In this document: positions 11,126 through 58,610 of the stretch, piece after piece | Position numbering within the stretch: the first letter of the stretch is position 1 | Layout: each line of letters opens with the position of its first letter | DNA from: Isoetes taiwanensis | Taxonomy: Eukaryota; Streptophyta; Lycopodiopsida; Isoetales; Isoetaceae | DNA length: 64,000 nucleotides | Assembly: GCA_021234155.1 (NCBI GenBank) | Contig: JAJEKV010000034.1 | Coordinates: forward strand, 5,994,028 to 6,058,027 | Direction of reading: 5' to 3' | Program-made: the position numbers and the translations under genes | Notes under the pieces: model-generated | The model's database searches: none | Seen by the model: only the letters and a program-made list of their open reading frames with translations | Told to the model about the DNA's origin: nothing

Positions 11126-11884
11126 ACTGTTCGGGATGAAAGGCTGCACTTCGTTACATATCGCCTGATTAAACTAATCAAACGTGAAGAATAGAATAGT
11201 GTTTTGAGATTGCGAATAAGTACTGTGCATTTAGTCTCAAACGACTATTCTATGTATGACTAAGTGCACTATCATAGAGTCTAGCAGTTCATTACGTTCG
11301 CCCTCAATGATCTGTGCAAATCTGCAATAATAATAATGCACAAATCTTTGGTGGTAACATGCTAGGAAACCTATTGGTCAGAGCCGATTTTCAGTGGAAA
11401 AACAGGTGGCACCGCCATTTGGGACACTGTCGGTTTTCTCATAATAACAATAATAATGCGCAAATCTTTGGTGGTAATGAAGATAAGGTTATCGGTCTGA
11501 CCTGATAACCAAAAATGTGTGACTATGGCTGTACGTCCAAGGCTAGATATTTGGCATGTAAGACCGAGGCCCACTATAGCCAAAGGCCGGACCGAGGTCT
11601 TACGAGCCAAATATATGGCTGACATTGGACCCCCGATATACGAATCAGAAGTGGTATTATTTTTGAGTTAGAAGGTTTAGGGCCTTGTTAGATATGGCGT
11701 GTAGGTTTCTGCATGGGTTGTTGCAGATGTGTTGCTTCCAGATTGTGTTGCTGTGCAGGTGTCGGAGTTACGGTTCTCTATTTTTTTGCTTACATGCAAA
11801 GCAAGAAAGGCATTCGTTATTTTGGATTCGAGCAGCGCCTAAGGTACTTGTTCTTGGATCTTGTATTGTAGCTTTAGTTAAGGG
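11126..11884. other. Intergenic stretch with short inverted repeats
   Basis: No gene is recognised. AATGCACAAATCTTTGGTGG and AATGCGCAAATCTTTGGTGG form a direct repeat at about 11335 and 11454. An imperfect inverted repeat lies at 11534-11626 (ATATTTGGCATGTAAGACC against GGTCTTACGAGCCAAATAT). Confidence 0.55.
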
Positions 11885-14800
11885 CTACATATTCTAAACG
11901 AGGTGCACCCTGGACTACCACAGTCGTCGGATCTGTCAATCCTACGGCCCAGACTGTATATTGGAGCCTCTGGACACCTCTCGTTTCGATTATGGTCAAT
12001 TATGATTGGGGACGCCTATGATTTTAAGATGTCAAATACGAGTTTGCCTAAGGTTTTGATAGTATGTGGAGCCTCTATACAGTTTTGCTTAAGCTTTTAG
12101 AATATGAAATACGGGGATTCGAACCTCTACCAAAATAATTCAATGTCCTAATAAGACTACTTTAACCAATCTAACCAGTGAGCTAATGTGACTATTTTTT
12201 ATCTTAAATCCATGTTTTTTTTTTATAATAACCCATTGAATTGTTTTTGGGATATGGTCTATGGTTTCAAGAATTATATCTATATCAAATCCCCACGGAA
12301 CCCCTGTTATTTTGCTACATATTCTAAACGAGGTGCACCACGGACTACCACGAGTCGTCGGGATCCATCAATCCTACGCCCGTGATCGTATATTGGAGCC
12401 TCTGGACACCTCTCGTTTCGATTATGCTCAATTATGATTGGGGACGCCTATGATTTTAAGATGTCAAATCTGAGTTTGCCTAAGGTTTTGATAGTATGTG
12501 GAGCCTCTATACAGTTTTGCTTAAGCTTTTAGAATATGAAATCTGAGGGATTGAACCTCTACCAAAATAATTCAATGTCCTAATAAGACTACTTTAACCA
12601 ATCTAACCAAAGTGAGCTAATGTGACTATTTTTTATCTTAAATCCATTTTTTTTATAATAACCCATTGAATTGTTTTTGGGATATGGTCTATGGTTTCAA
12701 GAATTATATCTATATCAAATCCCCCAGGAACCCCTATGTTATTTTGCTACATATTCTAAACGAGGTGCACCCACGGACTACCCGGTCGTCGGATCTATCA
12801 ATCCTACGCCCGAGGATCAGATATTGGAGCCTCGGACACCTCTCGTTTCGATTATGCTCAATTATGATTGGGGGCGCCTATGATTTTAAGATGTCAAATA
12901 CGAGTTTGCCTAAGGTTTTGATAGTATGTGGAGCCTCTATACGCTTTTGCTTAAGCTTTTAGAATATGAAATGAAACGGGGATTGAACCTCTACCAAAAT
13001 AATTCAATGTCCTAATAAGACTACTTTAACCAATCTAACCAAAGTGAGCTAATGTGACTATTTTTTATCTTAAATCCATGTTTTTTTTTTATAATAACCC
13101 ATTGAATTGTTTTGGGATATGGTCTATGGTTTCAAGAATTATATCTATATCAAATCCCCCCGGAACCCCTGTTATTTTGCTACATATTCTAAACGAGGTG
13201 CACCCGGACTACCATTCAATGTCGCTCGGATGGACTATTTTTTATCTTCAATCCCTACTAACCCATTGGTTTTATATTGGAGCCTCGGACACCTCTCGCT
13301 TTTCGATTATGCTCAATTATGATTGGGGGCGCCTATGATTTTAAGATGTCAAATACTGAGTTTGCCTAAGGTTTTGATAGTATGTGGAGCCTCTATACGC
13401 TTTTGCTTAAGCTTTTAGAATATGAAATCTGAGGGATTGAACCTCTACCAAAATAATTCAATGTCCTAATAAGACTACTTTAACCAATCTAACCAGTGAG
13501 CTAATGTGACTATTTTTTATCTTAAATCCATGTTTTTTTTTTATAATAACCCATTGAATTGTTTTTGGGATATGGTCTATGGTTTCAAGAATTATATCTA
13601 TATCAAATCCCCTCGAACCCCTCGTTATTTTGCTACATATTCTAAACGAGGTGCACCCTGGACTACCACAGTCGTCGGATCTGTCAATCCTACGGCCCAG
13701 ACTGTATATTGGAGCCTCTGGACACCTCTCGTTTCGATTATGCTCAATTATGATTGGGGACGCCTATGATTTTAAGATGTCAAATACGAGTTTGCCTAAG
13801 GTTTTGATAGTATGTGGAGCCTCTATACAGTTTTGCTTAAGCTTTTAGAATATGAAATACGGGGATTCAACCTCTACCAAAATAATTCAATGTCCTAATA
13901 AGACTACTTTAACCAATCTAACCAGTGAGCTAATGTGACTATTTTTTATCTTAAATCCATGTTTTTTTTTTATAATAACCCATTGAATTGTTTTTGGGAT
14001 ATGGTCTATGGTTTCAAGAATTATATCTATATCAAATCCCCCTGGAACCCCCTGTTATTTTGCTACATATTCTAAAAGGTGCCCCTCGACTACCAATTGA
14101 GTATATTGGATTCGACACTCCTCGCTTCGAATCAATTATGATTGGGGACTTATGATTTTAAGATGTCAAATGGGGATTAAGCTTTTAGAATATGAAACGG
14201 GGATTCAACCTCTACCAAAATAATTCAATGTCCTAATAAGACTACTTTAACCAATCTAACCGGTGAGCTAATGTGACTATTTTTATCTTAAATCCATGTT
14301 TTTTTTTTTATAATAACCCATTGAATTGTTTTTGGGATATGGTCTATGGTTTCAAGAATTATATCTATATCAAATCCCCCCGAACCCCATTTATTTTGCT
14401 ACATATTTTTGCTATATTCTAATGGTGCTCAATTAACCTAAAATCTATTGAATATTGGAGCCGGATCACAATCCTCGACTTCTCAAGTTTTGATTATGCT
14501 CAATTATGATTGGGATTGAACCTCTACCAAAATAATTCAATGTCCTATGATTTTAAGATGTCAAATACGTCTAGTTTGCCTAAGGTTTTGATAGTATGTG
14601 GAGCCTCTATACCTCGTTTGATTTTTGCTTAAGCTTTAGAATATGAAATATGAAATGGGATTGAACCTCTACCAAAATAATTCAAAAATAAGACTCACTT
14701 TGTCCTAAATAAGACTATTTTTATCTTAAATCATTTTTTTTTATAATAACCCATTGAATTGTTTTGGGATATGGCTATGGTTTCAAGAATTATATCTATT

Positions 14801-17800
14801 TTTTATCTTAAACCCATGTTATTTTTTTTTTAATAATAACCCATTGAATTGTTTTTGGGATATGGTCTATGGTTTCAAGAATTATATCTATATCAAATCT
14901 ACGAACCCCTTATATTTTACATATTCTAAACGAGACTATTTTTGCACCCCGATTATGCTCAATTATGATTGGGGACGCTTATGATTTTAAGATGTCAAAT
15001 ACGAGTTTGCCTAAGGTTTTGATAGTATGTGGAGCCTCTATCTGATTGTTTTGCTTAAGCTTTTAGAATATGAAATACTGGGATTGAACCTCTACCAAAA
15101 TAATTCAATGTCCTAATAAGACTACTTTAACCAATCTAACCAAATGAGCTAATGTGACTATTTTTTTATCTTAAATCCATGTTTTTTTTTTATAATAACC
15201 CATTGAATTGTTTTTGGGATATGGTCTATGGTTTCAAGAATTATATCTATATCAAATCCCCCTGGAACCCCCTGTTATTTTGCTACATATTCTAAACGAG
15301 GTGCACCCCTGGACTACCACGTCGTCGCCGGATCATCAATCCTACGCCCAGATGATATTGGAGCCTCTGGACACCTCTCGTTTCGATTATGCTCAATTAT
15401 GATTGGGGACGCCTATGATTTTAAGATGTCAAATACGAGTTTGCCTAAGGTTTTGATAGTATGTGGAGCCTCTATACAGTTTTGCTTAAGCTTTTAGAAT
15501 ATGAAATAATGGGATTGAACCTCTACCAAAATAATTCAATGTCCTAATAAGACTACTTTAACCAATCTAACCAGTGAGCTAATGTGACTATTTTTTATCT
15601 TAAATCCATGTTTTTTTTTTTATAATAACCCATTGAATTGTTTTTGGGATATGGTCTATGGTTTCAAGAATTATATCTATATCAAATCCCCCTGGAACCC
15701 CCTGTTATTTTGCTACATATTCTAAACGAGGTGCACCCCGGACTACCACAAATCCGGATCTGTCAATCCTACGGCCCGTGATCTGTATATTGGAGCCTCG
15801 GACACCTCTCGTTTTCGATTATGCTCAATTATGATTGGGGGCGCCTATGATTTTAAGATGTCAAATACGAAGTTTGCCTAAGGTTTTGATAGTATGTGGA
15901 GCCTCTATACGCTTTTTTGCTTAAGCTTTTAGAATATGAAATCTGGGATTGAACCTCTACCAAAATAATTCAATGTCCTAATAAGACTACTTTAACCAAT
16001 CTAACCAGTGAGCTAATGTGACTATTTTTTATCTTAAATCCATGTTTTTTTTTTTATAATAACCCATTGAATTGTTTTTGGGATATGGTCTATGGTTTCA
16101 AGAATTATATCTATATCAAATCCCACGGAACCCCTGGACACCTCTCATTTATTTTGCTACATATTTTAAGATGTCAAAAAGTTTGCCTAAGGTTTTGAGG
16201 TGCTTTTGCTTAACTTTTAGAATATGAAATACTGGGACTACCAAAATAATTCAATGTCCTAATAAGACTACTTTTAACCAATCGGATGAGCTAATGTGAC
16301 TATTTTTATCTTAAATCCATGTTTTTTTTTTATAATAACCCATTGAATTGTTTTGGGATATGGTCTATGGTTTCAAGAATTATATCTATATCAAATCCCC
16401 CGAATATACATGGAGGTGCACCCCGGACTCCGCCGGACACAATCCTCTCGATCAGATATTGATTATGCTCAATTATGATTGGGGACGCCTATGATTTTAA
16501 GATGTCAAATACGAGTTTGCCTAAGGTTTTGATAGTATGTGGAGCCTCTATACAGTTTTGCTTAAGCTTTTAGAATATGAAATACGGGGATTCGAACCTC
16601 TACCAAAATAATTCAATGTCCTAATAAGACTACTTTAACCAATCTAACCAGTGAGCTAATGTGACTATTTTTTATCTTAAATCCATGTTTTTTTTTTTAT
16701 AATAACCCATTGAATTGTTTTTGGGATATGGTCTATGGTTTCAAGAATTATATCTATATCAAATCCCCCTGGAACCCCCTGTTATTTTGCTACATATTCT
16801 AAACGAGGTGCACCCTGGACTACCACAGTCGTCGGATGTCAATCCCTACGCCCGGATCAGATATTGGAGCCTCTGGACACCTCTCGTTTCGATTATGCTC
16901 AATTATGATTGGGGACGCCTATGATTTTAAGATGTCAAATACGAGTTTGCCTAAGGTTTTGATAGTATGTGGAGCCTCTATACAGTTTTGCTTAAGCTTT
17001 TAGAATATGAAATACGGGGATTCGAACCTCTACCAAAATAATTCAATGTCCTAATAAGACTACTTTAACCAATCTAACCAGTGAGCTAATGTGACTATTT
17101 TTTTATCTTAAATCCATGTTTTTTTTTTTATAATAACCCATTGAATTGTTTTTGGGATATGGTCTATGGTTTCAAGAATTATATCTATATCAAATCCCCC
17201 TGGAACCCCCTGTTATTTTGCTACATATTCTAAACGAGGTGCACCCTGGACTACCACAGTCGTCGGATCATCAATCCCTACGGCCCGTGATCGTATATTG
17301 GAGCCTCTCGGACACCTCTCGTTTCGATTATGCTCAATTATGATTGGGGACGCCTATGATTTTAAGATGTCAAATCTGAGTTTGCCTAAGGTTTTGATAG
17401 TATGTGGAGCCTCTATACGTTTTGCTTAAGCTTTTAGAATATGAAATCTGGGGATTGAACCTCTACCAAAATAATTCAATGTCCTAATAAGACTACTTTA
17501 ACCAATCTAACCGGTGAGCTAATGTGACTATTTTTTATCTTAAATCCATTTTTTTTATAATAACCCATTGAATTGTTTTTGGGATATGGTCTATGGTTTC
17601 AAGAATTATATCTATATCAAATCCCCCGGAACCCCTGTTATTTTGCTACATATTCTAAACGAGGTGCACTATGATTTCGAAGATGACTACCACTTTTCGA
17701 TTTTCGGATTTTTTTATTTTGTCACCAAAATAATTGAACGCCCAATCTAACCAATGGTATATTGGAGCCTCTGGACACCTCTCGTTTCGATTATGCTCAA

Positions 17801-19637
17801 TTATGATTGGGGACGCCTATGATTTTAAGATGTCAAATACGAAGTTTGCCTAAGGTTTTGATAGTATGTGGAGCCTCTATACGGTTTTGCTTAAGCTTTT
17901 TAGAATATGAAATACTGGGGATTCGAACCTCTACCAAAATAATTCAATGTCCTAATAAGACTACTTTAACCAATCTAACCAGTGAGCTAATGTGACTATT
18001 TTTTATCTTAAATCCATGTTTTTTTTTTTTTTATAATAACCCATTGAATTGTTTTGGGATATGGTCTATGGTTTCAAGAATTATATCTATATCAAATCCC
18101 CCGAACCCCTGTTATTTTGCTACATATTCTAAACGAGGTGCACCTGGACTACCACGGTCGTCGGATACATCAATCCCGGCCCATGTCCCAGATATTGGAG
18201 CCCTGGACACCTCTCGTTTTCGATTATGCTCAATTATGATTGGGACGCCTATGATTTTAAGATGTCAAATAATGAAGTTTGCCTAAGGTTTTGATAGTAT
18301 GTGGAGCCTCTATACGGTTTTGCTTAAGCTTTTAGAATATGAAATACCTGGGGATTGAACCTCTACCAAAATAATTCAATGTCCTAATAAGACTACTTTA
18401 ACCAATCTAACCAGTGAGCTAATGTGACTATTTTTTATCTTAAATCCATGTTTTTTTTTTTATAATAACCCATTGAATTGTTTTTGGGATATGGTCTATG
18501 GTTTCAAGAATTATATCTATATCAAATCCCCCTGGAACCCCCTGTTATTTTGCTACATATTCTAAACGAGGTGCACCCTCGGACTACCATGCCGTTCAAT
18601 CCTACGGCCCGCATCAGTATATTGGAGCCCTGGACACCTCTCGTTTTTCGATTATGCTCAATTATGATTGGGGACGCCTATGATTTTAAGATGTCAAATA
18701 CGAGTTTGCCTAAGGTTTTGATAGTATGTGGAGCCTCTATACGCTTTTTGCTTAAGCTTTTAGAATATGAAATACGGGATTGAACCTCTACCAAAATAAT
18801 TCAATGTCCTAATAAGACTACTTTAACCAATCTAACCAAGTGAGCTAATGTGACTATTTTTATCTTAAATCCATGTTTTTTTTTTTATAATAACCCATTG
18901 AATTGTTTTTGGGATATGGTCTATGGTTTCAAGAATTATATCTATATCAAATCCCCCTGGAACCCCCTGTTATTTTGCTACATATTCTAAACGAGGTGCA
19001 CCCTGGACTACCACAGTCGCCGGATCTGTCAATCCTACGGCCCAGACTGTATATTGGAGCCTCTGGACACCTCTCGTTTCGATTATGCTCAATTATGATT
19101 GGGGACGCCTATGATTTTAAGATGTCAAATACGAGTTTGCCTAAGGTTTTGATAGTATGTGGAGCCTCTATACAGTTTTGCTTAAGCTTTTAGAATATGA
19201 AATACGGGGATTCGAACCTCTACCAAAATAATTCAATGTCCTAATAAGACTACTTTAACCAATCTAACCAGTGAGCTAATGTGACTATTTTTTATCTTAA
19301 ATCCATGTTTTTTTTTATAATAACCCATTGAATTGTTTTTGGGATATGGTCTATGGTTTCAAGAATTATATCTATATCAAATCCCCCTGGAACCCCCTGT
19401 TATTTTGCTACATATTCTAAACGAGGTGCACCCTGGACTACCACAGTCGTCGGATCTGTCAATCCTACGGCCCAGACTGTATATTGGAGCCTCTGGACAC
19501 CTCTCGTTTCGATTATGCTCAATTATGATTGGGGACGCCTATGATTTTAAGATGTCAAATACGAGTTTGCCTAAGGTTTTGATAGTATGTGGAGCCTCTA
19601 TACAGTTTTGCTTAAGCTTTTAGAATATGAAATACGG

Positions 19638-19709
19638 GGATTCGAACCTCTACCAAAATAATTCAATGTCCTAATAAGACTACTTTAACCAATCTAACCA
19701 GTGAGCTAA
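19638..19709 (-). promoter_or_regulatory. Internal Pol III-type promoter (A and B box), representative unit
   Basis: Minus strand: the A-box region TTAGCTCACTGGTTAGATTGG (19709-19689) is followed about 50 nt later by the B box GGTTCGAATCC (19648-19638), a perfect match to the tRNA consensus. The equivalent pair recurs in each intact unit of the array. The D and T stems are degenerate, so this is a tRNA-derived promoter rather than a tRNA gene. A TTTT lies just upstream of the B box (within GAATTATTTTGG) and could stop Pol III early. Confidence 0.7.
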
Positions 19710-21736
19710 TGTGACTATTTTTTATCTTAAATCCATGTTTTTTTTTTTATAATAACCCATTGAATTGTTTTTGGGATATGGTCTATGGTTTCAAGAATTA
19801 TATCTATATCAAATCCCCTCGAACCCCTCTGTTATTTTGCTACATATTCTAAACGAGGTGCACCCGGACTACCAAAGCCGTCGGATCTGTCCAATCCCTA
19901 CGGCCGGGATCAGTATATTGGAGCCTCTCGGACACCTCTCGTTTCGATTATGCTCAATTATGATTGGGGACGCTTATGATTTTAAGATGTCAAATACGAA
20001 GTTTGCCTAAGGTTTTGATAGTATGTGGAGCCTCTATACGCTTTTGCTTAAGCTTTTAGAATATGAAATACGGGGATTCAACCTCTACCAAAATAATTCA
20101 ATGTCCTAATAAGACTACTTTAACCAATCTAACCAAGTGAGCTAATGTGACTATTTTTTATCTTAAATCCATGTTTTTTTTTTATAATAACCCATTGAAT
20201 TGTTTTTGGGATATGGTCTATGGTTTCAAGAATTATATCTATATCAAATCCCCCTGGAACCCCCTGTTATTTTGCTACATATTCTAAACGAGGTGCACCC
20301 CGGACTACTGGACACAATTATGATTGGGGACGCTTATGATTTTAAGATGTCAAATAACGAAGTTTGCCTAAGGTTTTGATAGTATGTGGAGCCTCTATAC
20401 GCTTTGCCGAATATGATCTCCAATCCTAACCAAAGGAGCTAATGTGACTATTTTTATCTTAAATCCATGTTTTTTTTTTTATAATAACCCATTGAATTGT
20501 TTTGGATATTGGAGCCTCGGACACCTCTCGTTTCGATTATGCTCAATTATGATTGGGGGCTATGATTTTAAGATGTCAAATACGAGTTTGCCTAAGGTTT
20601 TGATAGTATGTGGAGCCTCTATACAGTTTTGCTTAAGCTTTTAGAATATGAAATACGGGGATTCGAACCTCTACCAAAATAATTCAATGTCCTAATAAGA
20701 CTACTTTAACCAATCTAACCAAAGTGAGCTAATGTGACTATTTTTATCTTAAATCCATTTTTTTTTTATAATAACCCATTGAATTGTTTTTGGGATATGG
20801 TCTATGGTTTCAAGAATTATATCTATATCAAATCCCCTCGAACCCCCTTGTTATTTTGCTACATATTCTAAACGAGGTGCACCCGGACTACCACGGTCGT
20901 CGGATCAATGTCAATCCTACGGCCCAGATCAGATATTGGAGCCTCGACGGACACCTCTCGTTTTGATTATGCTCAATTATGATTGGGGACTTATGATTTT
21001 AAGATGTCAAATACGAGTTTGCCTAAGGTTTTGATAGTATGTGGAGCCTCTATACGGTTTTGCTTAAGCTTTTAGAATATGAAATACTGGGATTCAACCT
21101 CTACCAAAATAATTCAATGTCCTAATAAGACTACTTTAACCAATCTAACCAAGTGAGCTAATGTGACTATTTTTATCTTAAATCCATGTTTTTTTTTTAT
21201 AATAACCCATTGAATTGTTTTTGGGATATGGTCTATGGTTTCAAGAATTATATCTATATCAAATCCCCCGAACCCCTCGTTATTTTGCTACATATTCTAA
21301 ACGAGGTGCACCCCTCGGACTACCACGGGGCCGTCGGATCTGTCAATCCTACATGCCGTGATCAGTATATTGGAGCCTCACGGACACCTCTCGCTTCGAT
21401 TATGCTCAATTATGATTGGGGACGCCTATGATTTTAAGATGTCAAATACGAGTTTGCCTAAGGTTTTGATAGTATGTGGAGCCTCTATACAGTTTCGCTT
21501 AAGCTTTTAGAATATGAAATACGGGGATTCGAACCTCTACCAAAATAATTCAATGTCCTAATAAGACTACTTTAACCAATCTAACCAGTGAGCTAATGTG
21601 ACTATTTTTTATCTTAAATCCATGTTTTTTTTTTTTTATAATAACCCATTGAATTGTTTTTGGGATATGGTCTATGGTTTCAAGAATTATATCTATATCA
21701 AATCCCCCTGGAACCCCCTGTTATTTTGCTACATAT

Positions 21737-22167
21737 TCTAAACGAGGTGCATCCTGGACTACTACGGTCGTCAAATTCGTCGATCCTACGACCCAGATCG
21801 TATGTTGGGGCCTCTTTCCGCTTATAGTCATTTATGATTGGAGGCGCCTATGATTTTGAAATACGGAATACACTTTCACCTAAGGTTTTGAGGGAATATC
21901 GAACCTCTATACGGCTTTGCCTAAGATTTTAGAATATGAAATACGGGGGCTCGAACCTCTACCAAAATAACTCAATGACCTAATAAGATTACTTCAACCA
22001 ATATACCCAGTGAGTTAATGTGACTATTTTTTATCTTGAATCTACGTTTTTTTTTTATAACAACCCATTTAATTGTTTTAGGGATATATGGTTTATGGTT
22101 TCAGGAATTGTTATTTTTTACATCCATATCAAATCCCCCTGGAACCCCCTATTATTTTGCTACATAT
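21737..22167 (-). repeat. Divergent right-edge unit of the satellite array
   Basis: This unit aligns end to end with the others but carries dozens of scattered substitutions (for example GACCTAATAAGATTACTTC against GTCCTAATAAGACTACTTT). The remaining units are nearly identical outside a few variable spots. Its B box is GGTTCGAGCCC. It ends CCCCCTATTATTTTGCTACATAT at unrelated flanking DNA. It may be the founder copy or simply an edge copy that escaped homogenisation. Confidence 0.75.
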
Positions 22168-22779
22168 GTGCATAATGTCTTTGAAGAAGGCTGCAAGGAA
22201 GGGTAAGGGGGTTGCTGGGTCTATTTCTCTACAAATCGGTGGTTCCTGAATATCCTGTGCTTGTTTTCTTTTGCAGATCGTTATACAAAGTTAATAGTGC
22301 TTATGAATGGCGGTAATCACTCAGATGTCACTGAGTGCTGGAGCTCTGGGCGATATCATCATAAGCTTCTGCGGATGCAGTTAGTTATTTGAGCATTGAG
22401 GTAAGGCAAGAACATTGGCATCTTATTACGGTTCGATTCCCCATGCTCCATTCTATCTATAGTCAGATGCTTGATTTGTATCTGGACTGTTGTATTGAAT
22501 GGTTGACAATCATTGTTTTAGTTTTTTTTATCTCCATTGGGTTGTTTGACCCCATCTTCATTTTAGACAGATGGCCTGCAGGGCTCTAGAGGGAATATCA
22601 TATGGGATATGCCACGATCCAATGGCCCTAAAAAATCTAGAAGCACCCCAAACGATAAAGCACCCCAAAAAACAAGGACTCTACTTTAACACACAAGAAT
22701 CAGATAAAATAAATTATCTATCTACCTAGTTAAATTACTAGTTGGGATAAATTTTTTCCAAATTGGCATTTATTAACTA
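22168..22779 (+). other. Flank of the array with a tRNA-like fragment
   Basis: No gene is recognised. At 22389-22453 a partly paired acceptor-like stem (TTGAGCA with TGCTCCA) and a B box GGTTCGATTCC resemble the relic at 1626-1681, including the shared 3' end CCCCATGCT-Y-CA. About 30 nt separate the arms, too few for a full tRNA. Confidence 0.4.
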
Positions 22780-29921: not shown

Positions 29922-29926
29922 CTCTA

Positions 29927-30340
29927 TGATGACTAATATGGGAAAATTTAATTTCAATTGCAAATACTTCTTATATATATCTCAATGTCAAACTCGAATG
30001 GTTTATAAGAAAACCTTCACTCCATTTTAAACGACCTTCCGATCGAATCTTCTCCGCCCCTACTCCACCGAATTCAAATCCGTCACTACATAAGTGTTGA
30101 TTCTTGTGTTACTTGATCAATCGGTGCATTATCCCAGTCGTCCAAGTTCGTCACCGATTACTAGATCTTTGCTTGTGTTACCACCTGGCCGATAATACTG
30201 TTCACCGACCAACCATACCTTTAACCATTACAATTACATATAAAAATGTATGATGTATCGAATACACCATGGCATGCATGGTTAACATTTTTCCAGTTAA
30301 TTATTCTATGAACCTAGACTAGATACTGCAGATTTCATCA
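29927..30340 (-). repeat. Copia 3' LTR
   Basis: A 414-bp direct repeat of 38129-38542. The only difference I found is in CACCGACCAACC here against CACCGAACAACC in the other copy, next to a CG site. It is preceded on the element strand by the polypurine tract. Confidence 0.93.
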
Positions 30341-30350
30341 CTTCCCCTTC
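30341..30350 (-). promoter_or_regulatory. Copia polypurine tract
   Basis: On the minus strand GAAGGGGAAG lies immediately before the 3' LTR start, as expected for the plus-strand DNA primer. Confidence 0.75.
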
Positions 30351-30486
30351 ATAGAATAATTCCCTGTAACTGAATCTTTTGTTTTCTCAGATCTTCAACA
30401 TTTACCTTCTGCTTCATAAACTTAATCCTTGGCTCTCTGATATCTCATCACTTCCCCATTGTAAAACATTTCTTTGTAACTGTGGA

Positions 30487-33262
30487 TTATAGTTGCAGAC
30501 TCCTCAGATCTTGAATATTCATCTTCTCCTTCAAGAACTCAAACCTTGGCTGCCTCAGTGCTTTTGTTAACATATCAGCCAGTTGATTTTCTGTTCTTAC
30601 ATATTTCACATCAATGTATCCTTTCTGTACCATGTCTCTGATGAAATGCTGCTTTAGTTCAATATGTTTAGATCGTTCATGTAAGACAGGGTTTTGTGTC
30701 ATTGCAATGCAACTTGCACTGTCAGAAAATAATTCTATAGGATTTTCATCCCCAAATCCAATTTCTGCCATTAACCTTTGTATCCAAACAATTTCTTTTG
30801 TAGCTAATGTTGCTGCACAGTACTCAGCTTCAGCACTTGAAAGGGCAACTGATGATTGTTTCTTGCATTTCCAACTGATGGGACTTCCTCCAAGCATAAG
30901 CAGATAACCTGAAGTTGAATGCCTATTGTCCAAATCTCCAGCCCAGTCTGCATCTGTATAACCTTGTAAATTGTGGCCTGCTCCTTTGTAACATATTCCA
31001 ACATTTCTTGTGCCTTTCAAATATCTTAAGATTCTCTTCGCTGCTATCCAATGTTGTTTGCCAGGGTTGTTATTATATCTGCTCAACAGATTTACTGCAA
31101 ACCCAATGTCTGGACGAGTCGCACCTGTCAGATAGAGCATGCAGCCAATAAGTTCTCTATATGGGACTTTGTTCATGTACTCCATTTCCTCTTTCATTCT
31201 GGGACACATTTCATCACTTATTTTGTGGCCTGGGACAAGTGGAATGCTCGCTATATTACAGTCATTCATCTTAAATCTTTTCAACATGCCATCAATGTTT
31301 GTTGTCTGAGTCAAATGCAGTATTTTCTTTTCTCTATATCTGGTGACTTCAATTCCGAGAAATTTTTTTAACTCGCCTACATCTTCCATCTTAAATCTTG
31401 CTTTCAGCAGCCTTTTGCAGGTGTTTAGAACTTCCATATTGCTCGCTATCATTATACAATCATCGACATATAACGCAACTATGCAAAACTGATCTCCTTC
31501 TTTGAACATGTATAAGTTTCCGTCTGAAGCCAGTTTGTTAAAGCTTTGTCCAGTTAAATAATTGTCTATGCACTTATACCAAGATCTTGCTGATTGTTTT
31601 AAGCCGTAAACAACCTTTTTTAATTTCCAAATTTTGTTTCCATCCTCCTCATATCCTGGTGCTGCTCTCATGAATATTTCCTCATCAAGTTCAGCATTCA
31701 AGAATGCCGTACTCACGTCCATGTGATGCATCTCAAAATTTAAATTATTAGCCAAAGCCAAAAGCATTCTGATGCTTGACATCTTCACAATAGGTGAAAA
31801 TGTGTCATTGTAATCTACTCCCTTTTTCTGAGAGAATCCCTGAGCGACTAATCTTGCTTTGAATTTTTGTTTCCCATTTGGTAATGTCTTTATTTTGTAA
31901 ATCCATTTGTTTCCAACAATGTTCTTGCCCTCAGGCTTTTCTACCACCTCATAGGTATTTGTCCTCTTAAAGGACATCATTTCTTCTCTCATTGCTGCCT
32001 TCCACATTTCACTATGTTCATCATTCATAGCCTCTTCAAAATTAAGAGGTATATTATCCTCTATTATTGTCATAAGCGCATGCACTACGTCTTCTTGCTC
32101 TTCAAGCCGTTTGCTCCTGCCACCTTCTTCTCTTCTTAGATCTTCAATAACAATCCCTTTTTCAGCAAGTTCAGCTTTCAGTCTTTCTCCTTCAGTTCTT
32201 TTCTTTTTCATTATCTTTATGGGGACCTCCATATCTCTATTATCACGTGACTCGATCATTTGCTTATCCCCTTCTATCTCATGTCCGACCTGTTTATCAT
32301 TTTGCACATCCTCATTATTGTCATGACCTAATACATCTACACCGTCATCACTTTCATAACCAGACTGGTCTGCAACATGGTCATAACAGATTTTTTTGTG
32401 TTGTGTACTTTCTTTCTTGTGCATCATGTTCTTTTCCCTATATAATTGTTCTTCTACAAATTTCACATCTCTGCTGACTAGTATACGTTTATTTTGTGGA
32501 TCATACAACCGATATCCCTTAGATTCTTCATCATAGCCAACCATATAAGCAATGGTGGCCCTGTCGTCTAGTTTTTTTCTGATCTCCTCTGGCAGATGCA
32601 CGTATGCTAGGCAGCCATATGCTTTGAACCTTTCAAAATCGGGTGCCCTCCCTGACCAAAGTTCCTCTGGCAATTTTTCTCCAGTGCTTGTAGAGGGCAA
32701 TCTATTTTGTATGTAAATTGCTGTTTTAAGCGCCTCTTCCCACAGTCTATTGGTCAGACCAGAATGCTTGATCATTGCTCTTACCGCATTAAGACATGTT
32801 CTATTTTTCCTTTCTGCGACCCCATTTTGTTGGGGCGTAAACCTACATGTCAATTGCCTCTTTATGCCATTTTGCATGCAAAATTGCTTAAACTTTCTTG
32901 AGATATACTCGCCCCCTCTATCAGATCTTAAACATTTCAGTTTTTTTCCAGTGTCCCTCTCAACTTCTGCTACATAATTCTTAAACACCTCTAGTGCCTC
33001 ACTTTTCTTTGTCAAGCAGTAGCATTTTGCTCTGCGTGTAAGGTCATCTATAAAAGTAATGAAGTATTGCTTCCCATTTAGACTCTTAACATTTAGTGGG
33101 CCACAAATATCAGTGTGCACTAATTCAAGGATCTCTTTTGCCCGTTGTGCTTTCTTCGGAAATGGTAATCTGGTGCTTTTGCCCAGCATGCAACCTCTGC
33201 AAAGAAAATGTTTATCTTCATCCTTTTCATAAAGAATGCATCCCATTTTGTTTAATTGCTTA
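30487..33262 (-). CDS. Copia pol: integrase, reverse transcriptase, RNase H
   Basis: One uninterrupted frame of about 925 copia-derived residues. It starts in the zinc-binding region (CRGCMLGKSTRLPFP). Integrase core follows with catalytic Asp in HTDICGP, Asp in LRSDRGGEY and Glu in PQQNGVAERKN. RT has FKARLVAQGFSQ, MDVSTAFLNAEL, YGLKQSARSWY and the catalytic YVDD. RNase H has YTDADWAGD, SSAEAEY and SDSASC, and it ends in NIQDLRSLQL then a stop. The frame stays open for about 35 more residues upstream (to 33366), but those belong to the nested insertion (VNMHPNQRGFKG…). The protein is thus cut off from gag and protease at its N-terminus. This half looks enzymatically intact. Confidence 0.88.
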
Positions 33263-33712
33263 ACCAACACATAACTACCATTGACATTAATAAATATAAC
33301 CATTGGATCCAACACATTTAAATTAAAATCCCCCTTAAACCCCCTTTGGTTTGGGTGCATATTCACACGGGGGGTGACGTAGGGCAGCGAGAGCCCTCAT
33401 AATTGTATTTTGCACGTACGAAATCAACACCATATAGTATTCCGGTTGAAATCTTATAGTATTTTGCGAATCTTGTTATACAGTATAGCAAATCTTGTAC
33501 TTGCATACCCCACAAATGAGGAACTTTACGTACGGTGTAGATTAAGGAATATGGGGCGAATATGCCAATCCGACAGCTCTCGATGCCCGGAGTCACCCCC
33601 CGTGTGAATATGCACCCAAACCAAAGGGGGTTTAAGGGGGATTTTAATTTAAATGTGTTGGATCCAATGGTTATATTTATTAATGTCAATGGTAGTTATG
33701 TGTTGGTTATTA
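33255..33712. repeat. Large imperfect inverted repeat at one end of the insertion
   Basis: The plus-strand arm at 33597-33712 (GTGAATATGCACCCAAACC, then AAAGGGGGTTTAAGGGGGAT, to TAGTTATGTGTTGGTT) is mirrored almost perfectly by 33372-33262. Inward, CACGGGGGGTGAC pairs with GTCACCCCCCGTG and then AGGGCAGCGAGAGC with GCTCTCGATGCCC. The centre is AT-rich. The outer end of the left arm is the junction with the copia. After the right arm, a hairpin GGCCCTTCGGGCC and an A-run follow. Confidence 0.8.
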
Positions 33713-33992
33713 TACTAAAAAATTTTTTTGGCCCTTCGGGCCATAAAAAAAAACAGACGTGAGAATATAACAGACATGTAGCAATATGTGTTATGTAATA
33801 TACAGCATTAAGAGAAAAAAGGGAATATAGTAAAATGAAATATGAGTAACTATAATATTAAAGCATAATGTAATATCATGCACTTGAACAATTATATTGA
33901 ACTTGAGAATTCACATGTGATTGTGTCGAATGGAATGGAATGGAATGTGTGATGTTAACATTAATAAATAGAATAGAATAGAATAGTACAAC

Positions 33993-34200
33993 AGCCTCTC
34001 CAACTTGTTTCCTCATCAAAAAAAGGAAAAAATATGCCAATGTATTATCTGCAATTGTCTGTACAATAGCCTCTCCAACTTGTTTCCTCATCAAAAAAAG
34101 GGAAAAATGTGCCAATGTATTATCTGCAATTGTTTGTACAGTAGCCTCTCCAACTTGTTTCCTCTTCAAAAAAAGGAAAAAACCTGCGAATGTATTATCT
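33993..34200. repeat. ~76-bp tandem repeat, 2.8 copies
   Basis: GCCTCTCCAACTTGTTTCCTC starts units at 33993, 34069 and 34144. Each carries an A-run and GCCAATGTATTATCTG. Just upstream GAATA and GGAAT pentamers repeat (about 33930-33985). It lies between the foldback and the captured gene. Confidence 0.8.
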
Positions 34201-34590
34201 GATTGTCCCAAAGCATTTTAACAATTGTTTTTTGAAGCAGCACACATTCTCCTGAAGATGAGCATTTGATCAGGCAGCATGGCCAATCTGTGCTACAACA
34301 GCATCTGTCTATGGATAGTTCTCTACCAAATAGACGCCAACTGATGATGCTGGCATAAGAGGGCAAGGCACGTAGGTCCTAAATCAGCAAATTTCCAGCT
34401 GGAATGATTATCCACATGTACCATTCAGTTCAAACAAGATCATGTGGAATAGCAAAAATATGCATCAAGCCCACCTGTCATCCAGAGCTAGCCTTAAAAC
34501 TTTAGACATTTGAGAATTCTACCCCTTAAACTTCGGCAATTGTTCCCTGCATCAGTCAAATGCGCATTCAACTTGATAATTAACTAATAC

Positions 34591-36030
34591 TTAAGTCCAA
34601 TGTGACAAAAATTTGCAAACATTTCGTCTAACCTTAAATGGGGATCTCCAGAAACCCCTGCCAATGCCACCATGAATCGGAGGGATTGATGGTCTCATAG
34701 GAGATTCCAAGCTCCTCTCATCAAGTTCAAGTGGTTCAAGACTCATCTTGAGCCATCCACTCAAATTGTGCAAGTAATCCCGCTGTGCGTAAATAAATCT
34801 GTGAAATGTGACATACCATTCATCAAGTGCTGCTTCCAACTGCAGTGTAGGCTGCCGATGAAGGTTTGTGGTTGCTTCATCTCTTCCAACGCATTCCACT
34901 GCCTTCATTTGCATGACTACTCTATGTTGCTCCAAATGGCAATGATAAAGGCCTACCCACATTCCCATAAGCCTGCAATTTTCATTAACTTTTTCATGTC
35001 AAGAATATAAAAACATCATCAAATCTAAGTAGCAACAGATGTAAATTTTACCCTTCCAAGAGCTGAAGAAGTTGCGGATAGAGTTCTTCATCTCTCAGCT
35101 TTTGAATATTTTTTGTAGCAGTGGCAACACCTTCAAGTGCAACCATTATCCGTGGTGCGTGATGCTTTAATAGCGGATGTGTCTTGTCAATTGCTTCATA
35201 ATCTCCTCTAGAATCCTCGGCTTCTTAGCGAGCACTCTTTTCTCGTACTCTCCACTCTAGCAAGTTTCAAGCAACCTAGAAAATTATTTGCATATGTATT
35301 CATATTTGGAAATAAATAAGAAAAAGCCAAAAGCAATCAAAATTGCATACCTTCACTTCGTCATATAACTTCTTTTCCCATGCAAAGATTTTATCAAGAG
35401 TATTTGAATGACTTGTTGAGTCACAAAGATCAACATCCTCAATTGCACTTCTGCTACTTCTATTGTACCAATTTCCCCATGAAATAGCTTGCAATACACG
35501 ATTAGAGTGGGAATCAAATCCTGGCATATGAATTTCAAGTAAGTTTTTGCCTCACACAGGTAGGCAAAAAGACTCTTATAAACATAGAATAGACAAAGAA
35601 CATACCCCTAAGATTGACGAAGTTGGAATGATAATGTATCTTTCTTGATTCAAGAAGACGTCCAAGCTCTTTTCCACTTTCATGAGCCTTCATGAATAGT
35701 TCATCCATTTCTCTAAGAACTTCAACCAAATCCTTTTGTCCAAGAGAAACAGGAGGAATAATAATGGATAATTCTCTTTTGTCACCACTTTCAAAACTAT
35801 CATACCCAGTTCCATCACTAAACTCCAAGGTACGTTGAGCCTGATCAAGGCCTTTTAATCCATAGATAAACTTGGGAGGTTTGTTACTAGATCTTGCTTC
35901 AGATGTGAGGAGAAGCAGTACCACTGGGCAGTCTTAACTCTTCAGGAAGAGGTGGTGGCGGCAAAAACAGAGGCCTCGGAGGAGGCTTCAACTCCGGTGT
36001 GCTAGGAGTCGAACTGGGTGCCTAATGATC
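34591..36030 (-). pseudogene. Captured DUF632 (NRG2/REL2-like) gene fragment with introns
   Basis: Four minus-strand exons are separated by introns with proper GT/AG ends. E1, about 36030-35606: a proline-rich stretch (PPPRPLFLPPPP), then LVEVLREMDELFMKAHESGK, the DUF632 start. E2, 35520-35351: HSNRVLQAISW and LDKIFAWEKKLYDEVK. E3, 35275-35052: APRIMVALEGVATATKNIQ and LRDEELYPQLLQLLEG. E4, 34972-34591: LMGMWVGLYHCHLEQH, LQLEAALDEWY, YLHNLSGWLKM, ending in a stop. The order matches land-plant DUF630/DUF632 proteins such as NRG2, linked in Arabidopsis to nitrate signalling. The N-terminal DUF630 was not found. Frames break in E1 (near 35930) and early in E3, so it is probably not functional. 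Retained introns show that genomic DNA, not cDNA, was captured. Confidence 0.82.
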
Positions 36031-36622
36031 TCTAATCTCTGTCTCGCCAAATTGCCGATCTCTGCAGATCAAGGCAGCAAGAGATCTGGAAAGAATAACA
36101 TGGAGAAGCATCCTATGCATTACTTCCGGCATTGGGCTTTGAGAGAACAATCTTTCCTGCTGGATTTGAGAAAAATATAAAGTGGGTTATGCACCACACT
36201 ATCCATTTCGACACAAGGGCAGACTGCTTAAATCTTAGCTATTGAGAAGCAAATCTGCCGTTCTGGAACAAGCAAAACTGACAAAGGGAATTCTCCTGTT
36301 CGCAGATCGCCGGAATGCAGAGATGATTCTTCCCTAAAAATCTTCATTTTCATTCCCAACACATAACCCTAAAATGGGTTATCTCGAGCCTTGCATGTCG
36401 AGCAGAATATTTGATACAATACGAAAATACAATATAAAAATAAATATATGATATATGGGTCTAAACCATTGGATATAGGCATCAAAATTAGTTCAACCGT
36501 ACGCGCACTCTAGATATACTAATCAGTATGCCTCATCAAATACATCCATGAAATCATATAAAAACCTTAGGGAAAAAAGTACAAAAATACAAAAGAAACC
36601 CCCTGTTATTATGCTACATATT

Positions 36623-38103
36623 TGTACTTATACCAGTGTGCCCTAAACGTTCATGCCAAAGCTTCAAAGGTTCTACTGACACACTATTCACAGTTGGTAT
36701 ACTATCTGCAGCATGCATTTCAAACAAATCACCAACTCTTTTTGCAAGAAAACATATTTTATTATCCTTCGTAATCTTACATAAGTACTTATCAAAAAGT
36801 ACCCTGAATCCCAAGTCAACTAACTGAGAAACTGAAATCAGGTTCTTTACTATGCCATCAACACATAAAACCTTTTTTAAATCAACGGGTTTCCCTTCCA
36901 GATCAAACAACCTCAACAGCCCAGCAGCTTCAACCTTTTTGGTTCTTCCATCTCCCAAACAGATTTTGGATGCATGCCTCTCCTTTTCTTCTCTGTAGAG
37001 CAGTTTATTTGAGCTTAAGATTGTTCGTTCAGCTCCTGAATCTATAATGAATGAAGCAATCTTAGCATTATGAATTTTACTTGATAAATTGCAGAAACTA
37101 TTTGTTACCTCTTCTTCTGAGTTTACATCATCCACGTCCACAAAGGCAACATGTTTACCTTTTCCTCTTCCTCTGCCTGCGCTACTTCCCCTTCCCCTGC
37201 CTCTACTGACTTTGGTGTGGGACACCTCGAAGAAAAGTGCCCAAAACCTCCACAATTGTAACAAGTCTTTGCATTCTGACTGCCTTTAGGGCAGTTTGCT
37301 CTGAGATGTCCTGATTCACCATATCCATAGCATGGCCCTATTTTCCTAATGTCTCTTTCAAATCATTTCCTTGATCCCTTCTCGTTTCCTTTCGCAACAG
37401 CTAGAATTTCAGGATTTTCTGAATCTTCATCTTCATCTGATTCATTCTTTTGCTCAATCTCAGTTCTGGCCAATCGTTCTGCTTCCTCTCTACTCTTTGC
37501 AACTGTTCTAATAAACATAGGCAAAGTTCCACATTTTGAGAACATTTTAGAAATAGCTAGTACCTGCTGACTCTCCGTCATAGTTGCTCCAGCTGCGTCT
37601 AGATCTGCACATAACGAGTCAAACTTATGAAACATCTCAGTAACATCCATCTTATCTTCATATTTTATTTTTCTCAATTCCTTTTGAAGAACATCAATCT
37701 GTGATGAGCTCTTAACCTCATACGTGCTAATCATGTAGTTCCAGGCATCTCTGGAACTCATTGATCTGAGCTTTAGCATTATACTTGGCGCCACTTTGCA
37801 CAGTATAATTGCCTTGGCCTAGTTCTCCTTCATGTGATCTTTCACATGAGCTCCACTACTCACTTCATCAGCTTCAGTAGCCTTTCAGGTTACTGAAATC
37901 CTTGCTGCAAAACTACTTGCATCACCACTAGTTTTGCTTTCTGCAACTGTACTTTCACCTGTGTTCTCACCTGGTTCAATGATATCCCACAAGCCTTCAA
38001 ACTTTAAAACTTCCATAATCTTTTCCTTCCAAATCTGAAAACCACCAACTCCTTTGAATACATCTATACTGCTTAGTAATGTGGCTCCAAATCGAGTTGA
38101 CAT
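36623..38103 (-). pseudogene. Copia gag and protease (disabled)
   Basis: Gag starts at MSTRFGATLLSSIDVFKG (38103). In-frame stops occur at 37885, near 37818 and at about 37360. At least two read as CGA changed to TGA (VT*KATEAD, GSRK*FERDI). Two zinc knuckles follow: CYGYGESGHLRANC, where the second Cys is Tyr, and the intact CYNCGGFGHFSSRC. A frameshift near 37210 leads into the protease with catalytic DSGA in FIIDSGAERTI, then the pre-integrase LWHERLGHTG. It ends at the nested insertion. Confidence 0.82.
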
Positions 38104-38115
38104 TGTATTCAGCCT

Positions 38116-38127
38116 GCTATGATACCA
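38116..38127 (-). promoter_or_regulatory. Copia primer-binding site
   Basis: On the minus strand TGGTATCATAGC lies one base after the 5' LTR. It matches the 3' end complement of plant initiator Met-tRNA (TGGTATCAGAGC) at 11 of 12 positions. Confidence 0.8.
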
Positions 38128-38128
38128 A

Positions 38129-38542
38129 TGATGACTAATATGGGAAAATTTAATTTCAATTGCAAATACTTCTTATATATATCTCAATGTCAAACTCGAA
38201 TGGTTTATAAGAAAACCTTCACTCCATTTTAAACGACCTTCCGATCGAATCTTCTCCGCCCCTACTCCACCGAATTCAAATCCGTCACTACATAAGTGTT
38301 GATTCTTGTGTTACTTGATCAATCGGTGCATTATCCCAGTCGTCCAAGTTCGTCACCGATTACTAGATCTTTGCTTGTGTTACCACCTGGCCGATAATAC
38401 TGTTCACCGAACAACCATACCTTTAACCATTACAATTACATATAAAAATGTATGATGTATCGAATACACCATGGCATGCATGGTTAACATTTTTCCAGTT
38501 AATTATTCTATGAACCTAGACTAGATACTGCAGATTTCATCA
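38129..38542 (-). repeat. Copia 5' LTR
   Basis: The 414-bp partner of 29927-30340. On the element strand it contains the start of transcription. I did not resolve a TATA box with confidence. Confidence 0.93.
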
Positions 38543-38547
38543 CTCTA

Positions 38548-38780: not shown

Positions 38781-39493
38781 CTATTCCTCAATGATCACCT
38801 TGTCTTTGACCCATTTTGCTTTTTGCTTGTTTTGTCTGGCTTCCTTATACTTAGCAAGTTCTACTTTCTTTTCTGCTAGCTGCTCTTTGGTTAGATCCTC
38901 ATTGATCCAAATAAATATTTCCTTCAATGTATATGTATTTTTCAGCACCAAGAATCGATCATCCCTGTTTGCAAACTTGACAATCATGTGTCTAGTTCCT
39001 GTATCTCTTTTCCCTACCCAGAATGCATCAGAGATGTCTACTTTTTGGATGCCTATAGTCTCTTGGAAGAACTGCTCTGCTGCAATTTTAGGCTTCTCCT
39101 CGGCTTTTTCCGGCAGCCCTACAATCCCGAGGTTCAAAGCTCGGCTCTTCCCGTCTGTATCTCCATAAAACCGCTCAAGGGTATTGCGCAAATCATAAAT
39201 TTCAGTTACCTCATCATCCCTGTGGGGCGGGTCCCGCTTCAATTCTTCAATGTCACTCTTTACTGCTTCGAGTTCCTTCCTATTTGCTGATAATCAGATC
39301 TGATTGCTTCATTCTCCTCTCTTAATTTTCGTATTTCTTCTAGCAGGGTCTCTTCCCGTGACGCAGCTTCTTGCCGAAAGAGAGATAGTTCCTTCCATAT
39401 GGTGGTGAGGGAGATCTCCATCCCTGAATCGGGACTAGAGGGCCCTCCATCGATTGGTTTGTCCTTTCTGGTTTGTCTTTTGGTGGTCGCCAT
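38781..39493 (-). pseudogene. LINE-A ORF1
   Basis: It starts MATTKRQTRKDKPIDGG (39493). Residues about 30-90 form a heptad-like coiled coil (EIRKLREENEAIRSDY, then a one-base frameshift near 39290, then KELEAVKSDIEELKRD). After it comes an RNA-binding-like region with LNLGIVGLPEKAEEKP, SDAFWVGKRDTGTRHMIVKF and a Lys-rich end, stopping at TAG 38783-38781. The layout coiled coil, RRM-like, basic tail is that of L1-type ORF1 RNA chaperones. The frameshift is shared by the second copy at 58.1-58.6 kb, so it predates the duplication. Confidence 0.72.
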
Positions 39494-39711
39494 ATCTCGC
39501 CGTATGCTGACAACAACTGCTGAAAATCTATACCCGACCGGAAAATTGTAATTACAGATACCTAAACAGATCCAAACCTGGTCATGCTATATACCTTAGA
39601 AAGGTCTCAAATCCGCTTTCCAATGAGCCCAAGCACTGCCAATCTGACACTTGGGAGAGAGTTATGGCCTGTTGAACCTTCGCCAAACCCTAGAAGGCCC
39701 AAATGGGCCCT

Positions 39712-40123
<412 letters not shown>

Positions 40124-43236: not shown

Positions 43237-43481
43237 TTTTTTTTTTTTTCTGAAGGCAAGGTTTTTTTTTGTATTCATACTAAGGTAAATACATCAGAAA
43301 GATACATCACTCAGACCGATATACCAAAATTAACAGACAGAAAAAGAGAAAAAGATAAGATCTCGAAGGATCTGATCTGTCATGTCCAAAAATTATTCCT
43401 CCTTTAAGATGTACAGAGGAATATAAGCGTACAGTAGATATGAAGTTTAGATTAAGCTCAAAAACAAATTTGAGTCTCCCT

Positions 43482-57783: not shown

Positions 57784-58103
57784 AAATCTGCATGAGCTCG
57801 GCATAGAAATTGTCCAAGTTTTCTTGGGTATCATGGCACGGGCTTTTGCTAAATCAAGTGTTTCTACACTCCTCAAAGCAACTTTGTAGATGCCTTTGTT
57901 TAAAAAGCGTCCATCACCTACTACCAAGCAGCCCTCTCCTTGAAGCAGCGATGATAACTTTCGTTCCTTGACTTGCCCTACCAAGAGTCCAATTAACTAG
58001 TTCTTTCTCTTGGTGGTCTCTGGCATACCAGATTTCCTACACACCTCTCTAACCGAAATGTCAAACTCATTAACCTCTTTTCTAGTTCCTGTATCTAGTT
58101 CCT

Positions 58104-58610
58104 GTGTCTAGTTCCTGTATCTCTTTTCCCTACCCAGAATGCATCAGAGATGTCTACTTTTTGGATGCCTATAGTCTCTTGGAAGAACTGCTCTGCTGCA
58201 ATTTTAGGCTTCTCCTCTGGCTTTTCTGGCAGCCCTACAATCCTGAGGTTCAAAGCTCGGCTCTTCCTGTCCTGTATCTCCATAAACTGCTCAAGGGTAT
58301 TGCGCAAATCATAAATTTCAGTTACCTCATCATCCCCAGGGCCGGGTTCCCGCTTCAATTCTTCAATGTCACTCTTTACTGCTTCGAGTTCCTTCCTATT
58401 TGCTGATAATCAGATCTGATTGCTTCATTCTCCTCTCTTAATTTTCGTATTTCTTCTAGCAGGGTCTCTTCCCGTGACGCAGCTTCTTGCCGAAAGAGAG
58501 ATAGTTCCTTCCATATGGTGGTGAGGGAGATCTCCATCCCTGAATCGGGACTAGAGGGCCCTCCATCGATTGGTTTGTCCTTTCTAGTTTGTCTTTTGGT
58601 GGTCCCATAT
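58104..58610 (-). pseudogene. LINE-A ORF1, duplicated fragment
   Basis: Minus strand: the coiled-coil part with the same frameshift as at 39290, then DDEVTEIYDLRNTLEQF, LNLRIVGLPEKPEEKP and SDAFWVGKRDTGTRH, cut off at the breakpoint 58104. The C-terminal third is absent. Confidence 0.75.

What the first reader, a model, noticed from the sequence alone, without database searches (positions are those of the whole stretch)
11885..22167. Satellite array in which every unit carries a tRNA-derived Pol III promoter
Directly seen: about 23 units of ~430 bp, each with a perfect B box GGTTCGAATCC and an A-box-like TAGCTCACTGG about 50-60 nt upstream, on the minus strand. Dispersed SINEs with such boxes are common, but a 10-kb tandem array of promoter-bearing units is unusual. 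It could be a locus of repeated Pol III transcription or TFIIIC binding, or an insulator-like cluster. The unit is not a plain SINE, because the tRNA-like part starts about 160 bp inside it.
Basis: partly seen in the sequence, partly recalled or inferred. Interest (0 to 1): 0.75.

Follow-up and report, generated by a model that had tools for sequence, protein, structure and literature searches.

The report
Tandem array of a mobile element
A 10-kb stretch of a plant genome is about two dozen head-to-tail copies of a short non-coding mobile element that also sits, singly or in small arrays, at very many other places; its tRNA-like promoter boxes look inherited rather than specially kept, and much of the variation between copies looks like assembly error.

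Summary
The array is real (window 11884-22165, minus strand; 24 pieces, typically about 430 bp), but the finding overstates it. A perfect B box stands in 8 of 23 comparable sites; 15 have lost one base of its CpG. Changes between units cluster at CG/CHG sites and are mostly indels. None of 15 dispersed single copies (top-scoring hits) lost its B box, so most differences inside the array are probably consensus errors. The unit is a dispersed mobile element: 4,108 places carry its tRNA-like segment and 13,517 its terminus, which other, longer elements share. Copies mostly start at one point (ATATGTAGC|AAAATAAC) after unrelated flanks and end about one unit later. Seven insertions have an empty sister site; joints show microhomology, 0-4 bp shared, sometimes filler or a small deletion, and no SINE-length duplication. 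One edge unit (21728-22165) belongs to an older subfamily, so young units were added beside an old copy. A and B boxes are no better conserved than the rest, no tRNA fold is recognised, and TTTT lies between them. Best reading: a transposon-derived satellite with passenger Pol III boxes. The insertion mechanism (rolling-circle-like, T-DNA-like joining favoured) is unproven and no helper was found. A new member of a known kind.

The parts
11884..21727 (-). 23 head-to-tail pieces of the young subfamily of the ~430-bp unit (254-584 bp as assembled; 16 of 425-453 bp)
   Evidence: the 13 of these 23 put in the tree group with dispersed near-identical copies
21728..22165 (-). 5'-most unit (minus-strand sense), about 80% identical to the others, member of an older subfamily
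   Evidence: 52 substitutions, 38 of them transitions; groups with L056, L064, L067
18977..19406 (-). reference unit, 430 bp, intact boxes
   Evidence: near-identical copies elsewhere in the genome
19208..19218 (-). intact B-box motif GGTTCGAATCC in the reference unit (others start at 12115, 16588, 17018, 17919, 19638, 20659, 21525)
19268..19278 (-). A-box motif TAGCTCACTGG in the reference unit
19225..19228 (-). TTTT (minus strand) between A and B box, a possible early Pol III stop
   Evidence: present in 24 of 25 units checked
22145..22167 (-). 5' terminus of the array, ATATGTAGCAAAATAATAGGGGG: the end shared with dispersed copies and with longer elements
11884..11891 (-). 3' end of the array, ...TATGTAGC|, where unit homology stops

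Best explanation
SHOWN: the array is a head-to-tail multimer of a short (~430 bp) non-coding mobile element that is dispersed through the genome and elsewhere also stands in runs of 1, 2, 3, about 6, about 13 or more. The copies examined mostly start at one point and end about one (or n) unit lengths later. Seven insertions with empty sister sites change the target by -6 to +4 bp, with short homology at the joints. The window array carries one old-subfamily unit at its 5' edge, next to young units. INFERRED: a helper-made, unit-length or concatemeric DNA copy with one fixed end (as from a nicking, rolling-circle-type enzyme) is joined into breaks by microhomology, much as T-DNA is. Here a young multimer joined at the end of an old copy, or a young copy did and then grew by unequal exchange. 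The A and B boxes are a tRNA-SINE-like passenger module. Most within-array differences are consensus errors at methylatable CG/CHG cytosines.
For: Dispersal: 2,683 first-look candidates, 94 matches from the 40 scored, many 97-100% identical over the full unit; 4,108 head and 13,517 terminus places, reversed controls 0. Start and end: 20 of 20 copies or runs whose start was in view begin at ATATGTAGC, as do 8 of 9 array starts in view; 128 of 134 heads in the held loci have the terminus within 200 nt upstream; ends vary by about 20 nt round the unit end. Shared terminus: 5 of 18 fetched terminus places are other, longer elements, two of which run 2.5 kb at 95% identity with no ORF above 130 aa. 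Empty sites: 7 of 18 insertions queried. Composite array: tree. Artefact: change rate 0.122 per base within 2 nt of CG/CHG against 0.0079 elsewhere, 0 of 429 circular shifts as large; 134 gap events in 16 array units against 7 in 15 single copies; one-base B-box losses 62 of 139 in tandem context, 0 of 15 singly; gap events per unit rise away from the unique flank at C735 (6, 8, 10, 13) and C907 (2, 11, 14).
Against: No helper protein was found: 3 of 3 coding Helitron loci fetched lack the terminus, each seen over 8 kb only. Microhomology at the 5' joint also fits reverse transcription primed on the opposite strand. The fixed start is drawn from biased samples: copies were chosen as full-unit top hits or by the terminus itself. 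Against it: 6 of 134 heads lack the terminus, two of them older relatives, and of 6 exact heads listed on contigs up to C101 only one (C18) has an exact terminus at the expected place in the list; the window array itself has 10 exact termini. One array start (L010) lies inside a unit. The 15 single copies were top hits, which favours copies without gaps. Clean units occur inside the window array too (13632, 18977, 19407), at C78 the gap counts are not ordered (9, 4, 9, 17), and short runs can be nearly clean (C170 0, C1078 1, C1045 3 gap events). Sequencing technology and methylation of this genome are unknown to me.
Confidence: 0.58

Rival explanations
1. Reverse-transcribed element: plus-strand RNA ending ...GCTACATAT primes on a nicked target by 2-4 nt of base pairing (target-primed reverse transcription), helped by a LINE or Penelope-type enzyme; arrays come from tandem templates.
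For: In three empty/filled pairs the element begins at |ATATGTAGC, |ATGTAGC or |GTAGC after target ends GA, GAAT, ATAT that match its own AGAATAT. The terminus is shared between unlike elements, as SINEs share LINE tails.
Against: No tail, no duplication of 7 bp or more (0 of 7). Of 13 type A copies sampled by the terminus only one (L060) is cut far short, whereas 5' truncation would be expected. The Pol III boxes lie on the other strand. No plus-strand partner was found, but none was searched for genome-wide.
Confidence: 0.25
2. Functional Pol III or TFIIIC locus: each unit binds TFIIIC, the array works as a transcription or insulator cluster.
For: A and B motifs at a workable distance, 60 nt start to start; B box TTCGAATCC intact in 15 of 15 dispersed young copies.
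Against: Boxes no better conserved than the rest in nine old copies (0.90 and 0.87 against 0.90 overall); TTTT between the boxes; no Rfam family over its gathering score in the window and no tRNA match at looser settings; thousands of like copies elsewhere.
Confidence: 0.08
3. The within-array differences are true mutations: an old array decaying at methylated CG/CHG sites.
For: The changes sit at CG and CHG, where plant cytosines are methylated (recalled).
Against: Decay of methylcytosine gives C-to-T. Among 139 B boxes in tandem context I saw 62 one-base losses and 2 CA forms, no TG form; in the window gap events (134) exceed substitutions (112), whereas the old edge unit differs mainly by substitutions (52; 38 transitions).
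Confidence: 0.12
4. In-place growth only: one inserted copy expanded by unequal crossing-over; multimers are never inserted.
For: Units of one region can group together: 11 of 12 C24 units and 3 of 3 C12 units in the tree, though C55 and C78 units scatter.
Against: Dimers and trimers stand at sites with empty sisters (L023, L026, L029, L045), and unlike elements abut at the same joint (old-young in the window; type A followed by a different element in L048 and L060). None of this rules growth out.
Confidence: 0.3

Closest known systems
SINE-derived satellites of squamate reptiles (PMC10702118; abstract and Discussion read)
   Same: Tandem repeats made from a short dispersed element; many loci.
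   Different: There a part of the SINE is repeated and a longer terminal unit usually remains; here the whole element repeats, and its insertions lack SINE hallmarks.
Cassandra TRIM tandem arrays in plants, ferns included (PMC7215508; abstract and passages read)
   Same: Plant tandem arrays in which every repeat carries a Pol III promoter.
   Different: Cassandra is an LTR element with 5S sequence in its LTRs; here tRNA-like boxes and no 5S match. LTRs and a primer binding site were not sought separately.
Helitron2 / Helentron and their short partners DINE/HINE (PMC5148889, PMC4067079; passages read)
   Same: No long target-site duplication, abundant non-coding copies, tandem insertions, shared ends between unlike elements; the type B 3' end looks like an imperfect inverted copy of the 5' end.
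   Different: The 5' joint slides by microhomology and no T-tract target is seen; three coding Helitrons of this genome lack these ends over the 8 kb fetched.
Replitrons (passage in the review PMC10741241; the original paper is not held)
   Same: Short direct terminal repeats (AATATGTAGC at both ends of full copies); 5 of 7 insertions share 2-4 bp, inside the 2-8 bp reported; reported from lycophytes and ferns.
   Different: Two of 7 insertions share none or lose 6 bp; the unit is shorter than the 900 bp to 4 kb given; no HUH protein found or searched for.
Agrobacterium T-DNA integration (PMC8395108; start of abstract in a listing only)
   Same: Microhomology, filler and small deletions at the joints.
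   Different: No bacterial source; a mechanism analogy only.

Membership tests
tRNA-derived SINE | A and B boxes at Pol III spacing | tested here: met
   (motif level only)
tRNA-derived SINE | recognisable tRNA-related head | tested here: inconclusive
   no ARAGORN gene, no Rfam tRNA at E<=10 for 18900-19900 or E<=5 in 12 loci, 9 of them unit relatives; SINE heads are often too diverged (recalled)
tRNA-derived SINE | 3' tail (A, T or simple repeat) | tested here: not met
   copies end at ...GAATATGTAGC, about 20 nt either way, without a tail
tRNA-derived SINE | target-site duplication of about 7 bp or more | tested here: not met
   0 of 7 empty/filled pairs; 0 of 23 share 4 bp or more by flank comparison
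Helitron (canonical) | 5' TC, 3' CTRR, insertion between A and T | tested here: not met
   5' ATATGTAGC; 3' ends variable
Helitron2/Helentron | asymmetric or subterminal inverted repeats | tested here: inconclusive
   type B ends: ATATG-12 nt-AGGGGGTT inverted near the 3' end (read by eye, which has a 20-bp inverted match at 90% to the type A 5' region); the self-comparison of the type B element showed no terminal inverted repeat; type A not
Helitron2/Helentron | Rep/helicase partner with the same ends | tested here: inconclusive
   0 of 3 coding Helitron loci (8 kb each) carry them; 150 scored hits of 1,813 candidates exist
Replitron | direct terminal repeats of 5-11 bp | tested here: inconclusive
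   AATATGTAGC at both ends of full copies, but several copies end before it
Replitron | HUH endonuclease partner | not tested
Replitron | 2-8 bp target-site duplication | tested here: inconclusive
   5 of 7 share 2-4 bp, one shares none, one loses 6 bp; shared bases may be microhomology
Satellite DNA (transposon-derived) | long head-to-tail arrays of a homogeneous unit at several loci | tested here: met
   window, C24, C55, C12, C78, C21
Cassandra (TRIM) | 5S-bearing LTRs | tested here: not met
   no Rfam family over its gathering score in the window

The most novel reading that the evidence does not exclude
A large family of plant elements that share only a ~25-bp end and are copied as single- or multi-unit DNA with one fixed end by an unidentified nicking enzyme, then joined into the genome by microhomology like T-DNA. 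This would be a distinct mode of transposition, building satellites directly by inserting multimers beside existing copies.
Probability: 0.2. Interest if true: 0.7.

Novelty: new member of a known kind. Interest (0 to 1): 0.4.

Why it matters
It shows an abundant young mobile element caught at several stages between single copy and satellite, with empty sister sites that define some insertions exactly. It also warns that promoter 'decay' in assembled satellites can be base-calling error at methylatable cytosines. If the helper were found, the origin of satellites from multimer insertion could be tested directly.

Tried and rejected
Rejected: a perfect B box in every unit; simple ancient decay of the array; an ordinary SINE; the canonical Helitron. 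Led nowhere: organism identity by protein (copia best hits about 40% identical; LINE about 25%; a 138-aa ORF without homologue). Three coding Helitrons without the ends. A genome-wide count of intact against one-base-deleted B boxes did not complete. No paper on this repeat family turned up in the ten paper searches (the last two were on other topics), seen mostly as listings; that is weak evidence that it is undescribed.
Full report
THE OBSERVATION. TRF reports four blocks with 430-434 bp period between 11884 and 22167. Anchors cut the array into 24 pieces, 254 to 584 bp long; 16 of them, the edge unit aside, are 425-453 bp. On the minus strand the array has 18 A-box-like sites (TAGCTCACTGG, 12 exact, 6 with one mismatch) and a B-box site in most pieces. 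The perfect B box occurs 8 times, not in every unit. Among 23 sites with the same left context, 8 read CGAA, 4 GAA and 11 CAA.

THE VARIATION BETWEEN UNITS. The units are identical over long AT-rich stretches and scrambled at a few spots. Within 2 nt of a CG or CHG the mean share of 15 units that differ from unit 18977 is 0.122, elsewhere 0.0079; none of 429 circular shifts of the mask gives as large a difference. In 16 full-length window units (the reference unit itself among them) I count 64 transitions, 48 transversions and 134 gap events; in 15 dispersed single copies 65, 19 and 7. All 15 single copies keep the B-box CpG; in tandem context 71 of 139 do, 62 have lost one base, and 6 are other forms. 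The single copies were the top hits of a search, which favours copies without gaps. At C735 and C907 gap events per unit rise away from the unique flank (6, 8, 10, 13 and 2, 11, 14), but at C78 they do not follow an order (9, 4, 9, 17), and dimers or trimers elsewhere had 0 (C170), 1 (C1078), 3 (C1045), and 3 and 9 (C1049). Similar scrambles are visible between the repeated copies L061-L063 and L054/L055. I take most of this as consensus error in repeats at methylatable cytosines; sequencing chemistry and methylation are not known to me, so this is inference.

IT IS A DISPERSED ELEMENT. The window lies in a 1.66-Gb assembly of 1110 contigs. The reference unit has 2,683 first-look candidates there; the 40 scored gave 94 matches, many full-length at 97-100% identity. 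A 29-nt head pattern occurs 4,108 times and the 25-nt terminus ATATGTAGCAAAATAACAGGGGGTT 13,517 times (up to 2 mismatches; reversed control 0). These counts include tandem copies. Other arrays were fetched at C24, C55, C12, C78, C21 and a two-unit one at C2. Of 22 copies or short runs displayed, the 20 whose start was in view begin at ATATGTAGC with unrelated sequence before it, 8 of 9 array starts in view do so, one (L010) lies inside a unit. The 3' end lies from about 20 nt before to 16 nt after the unit end. These samples were picked as full-unit hits or by the terminus, so they favour a common start. In the held loci 128 of 134 heads have the terminus within 200 nt upstream; of the 6 without, two are older relatives (L009, L012) and four lie in arrays. 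A result against: of 6 exact heads listed on contigs up to C101 only the one on C18 has an exact terminus at the expected place; the window array itself has 10 exact termini.

THE END IS SHARED. I fetched 18 terminus places, picked by hand among the first of 100 listed. Thirteen are this unit or older relatives of it (three of them one segmental duplication; one, L060, is cut far short), five are other elements that share only the end. Two of these align over 2.5 kb at 95%; their longest ORF is 130 aa. Read by eye, their 3' end resembles an inverted copy of the 5' end, but a self-comparison showed no terminal inverted repeat. A further complete example is 1,057 bp and directly follows a type A unit (L048).

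EMPTY SITES. Joined flanks of 18 insertions were searched; 7 found an empty sister site (only the 40 best candidates of each call were scored, so the other 11 are open). Exact joints: L030 no change; L025 2 bp (AT) shared; L031 3 bp shared plus 4 nt filler; L045 3 bp (AAT) shared; L023 4 bp (GCAA) shared; L029 about 2 bp; L026 6 bp of target lost. The bases shared at the joints often match the element's own AGAATATGTAGCAAAATAAC. The simpler flank comparison found no duplication of 4 bp or more in 23 insertions (1.5 expected after shuffling), because it counted the shared bases as element.

COMPOSITE ARRAY. In a tree of units, the window unit 21728-22165 falls among old copies (L056, L064, L067), while the other 13 window units tested group with near-identical dispersed copies. 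Young units were thus added at the end of an old copy.

PROMOTER MOTIFS. Nine old copies (the window edge unit among them) give mean conservation 0.90 (A box) and 0.87 (B box), against 0.90 overall; 63% and 72% of 11-nt windows do as well or better (L063 left out, L060-L062 and L069 not used). TTTT lies between the boxes in 24 of 25 units checked (14 window, 11 dispersed). ARAGORN and Rfam see no tRNA. The boxes are real motifs but nothing shows that they are used.

MECHANISM. Shown: a common start in the copies examined, near-unit ends, multimers, microhomology, near-unchanged target. Inferred: copies with one fixed end, made by a nicking or rolling-circle type of enzyme, joined by microhomology. 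Target-primed reverse transcription from the plus strand is the main rival. Helitron proteins are abundant (150 scored hits of 1,813 candidates), but three coding loci lacked these ends over 8 kb each. Replitrons, reported in lycophytes and ferns with short direct terminal repeats and 2-8 bp duplications (review passage), fit in part (5 of 7 insertions share 2-4 bp), but no HUH protein could be sought. Growth by unequal exchange after insertion is likely to add to the array.

KNOWN KINDS. SINE-derived satellites and Pol-III-promoter-bearing tandem arrays are known. This is a new member of that kind; the insertion mode is the part that could be new.

Noticed in passing
window 38984-44898 and 58100-64000: 5.9-kb direct repeat at 96.9% identity, 19.1 kb apart, running to the window end.
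   Followed up: partly
window 29926-38544: Copia element with LTR-like repeats 29926-30342 and 38128-38544, 417 bp, 99.8% identical; its pol ORF is only about 40% identical to the best protein matches.
   Followed up: partly
window 33326-33644: Two converging copies of the 3' end seen on the 2.5-kb elements, around a ~235-bp core with its own inverted repeats (CACACGGGGGGTGACG...), inside the copia element.
   Followed up: partly
window 22430-22440: A lone B-box-like GGTTCGATTCC on the plus strand, 265 bp beyond the array.
   Followed up: no
L001, L005, L008: A different dispersed tRNA-like element (e.g. GCTTGGTCTAGTGGTTAG...GGTTCGAATCC in L005) followed by repeated CCGTAGGATC-like motifs; the array unit has one such motif, TGGGCCGTAGGAT.
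   Followed up: partly
L009:7308-7517 and L012:6544-6724: An older relative of the tRNA-like head after a long T run, without the 5' terminus upstream, followed by the other (3') terminus.
   Followed up: partly
L036: A unit inserted in what reads like a leucine-rich-repeat gene (reading by eye).
   Followed up: no
G000:C24:699000-732000: A ~33-kb region with several blocks of the array: two blocks share a near-identical 5' flank (L009, L012) and two a near-identical 3' flank (L010), so array and flank seem to have been duplicated together.
   Followed up: partly
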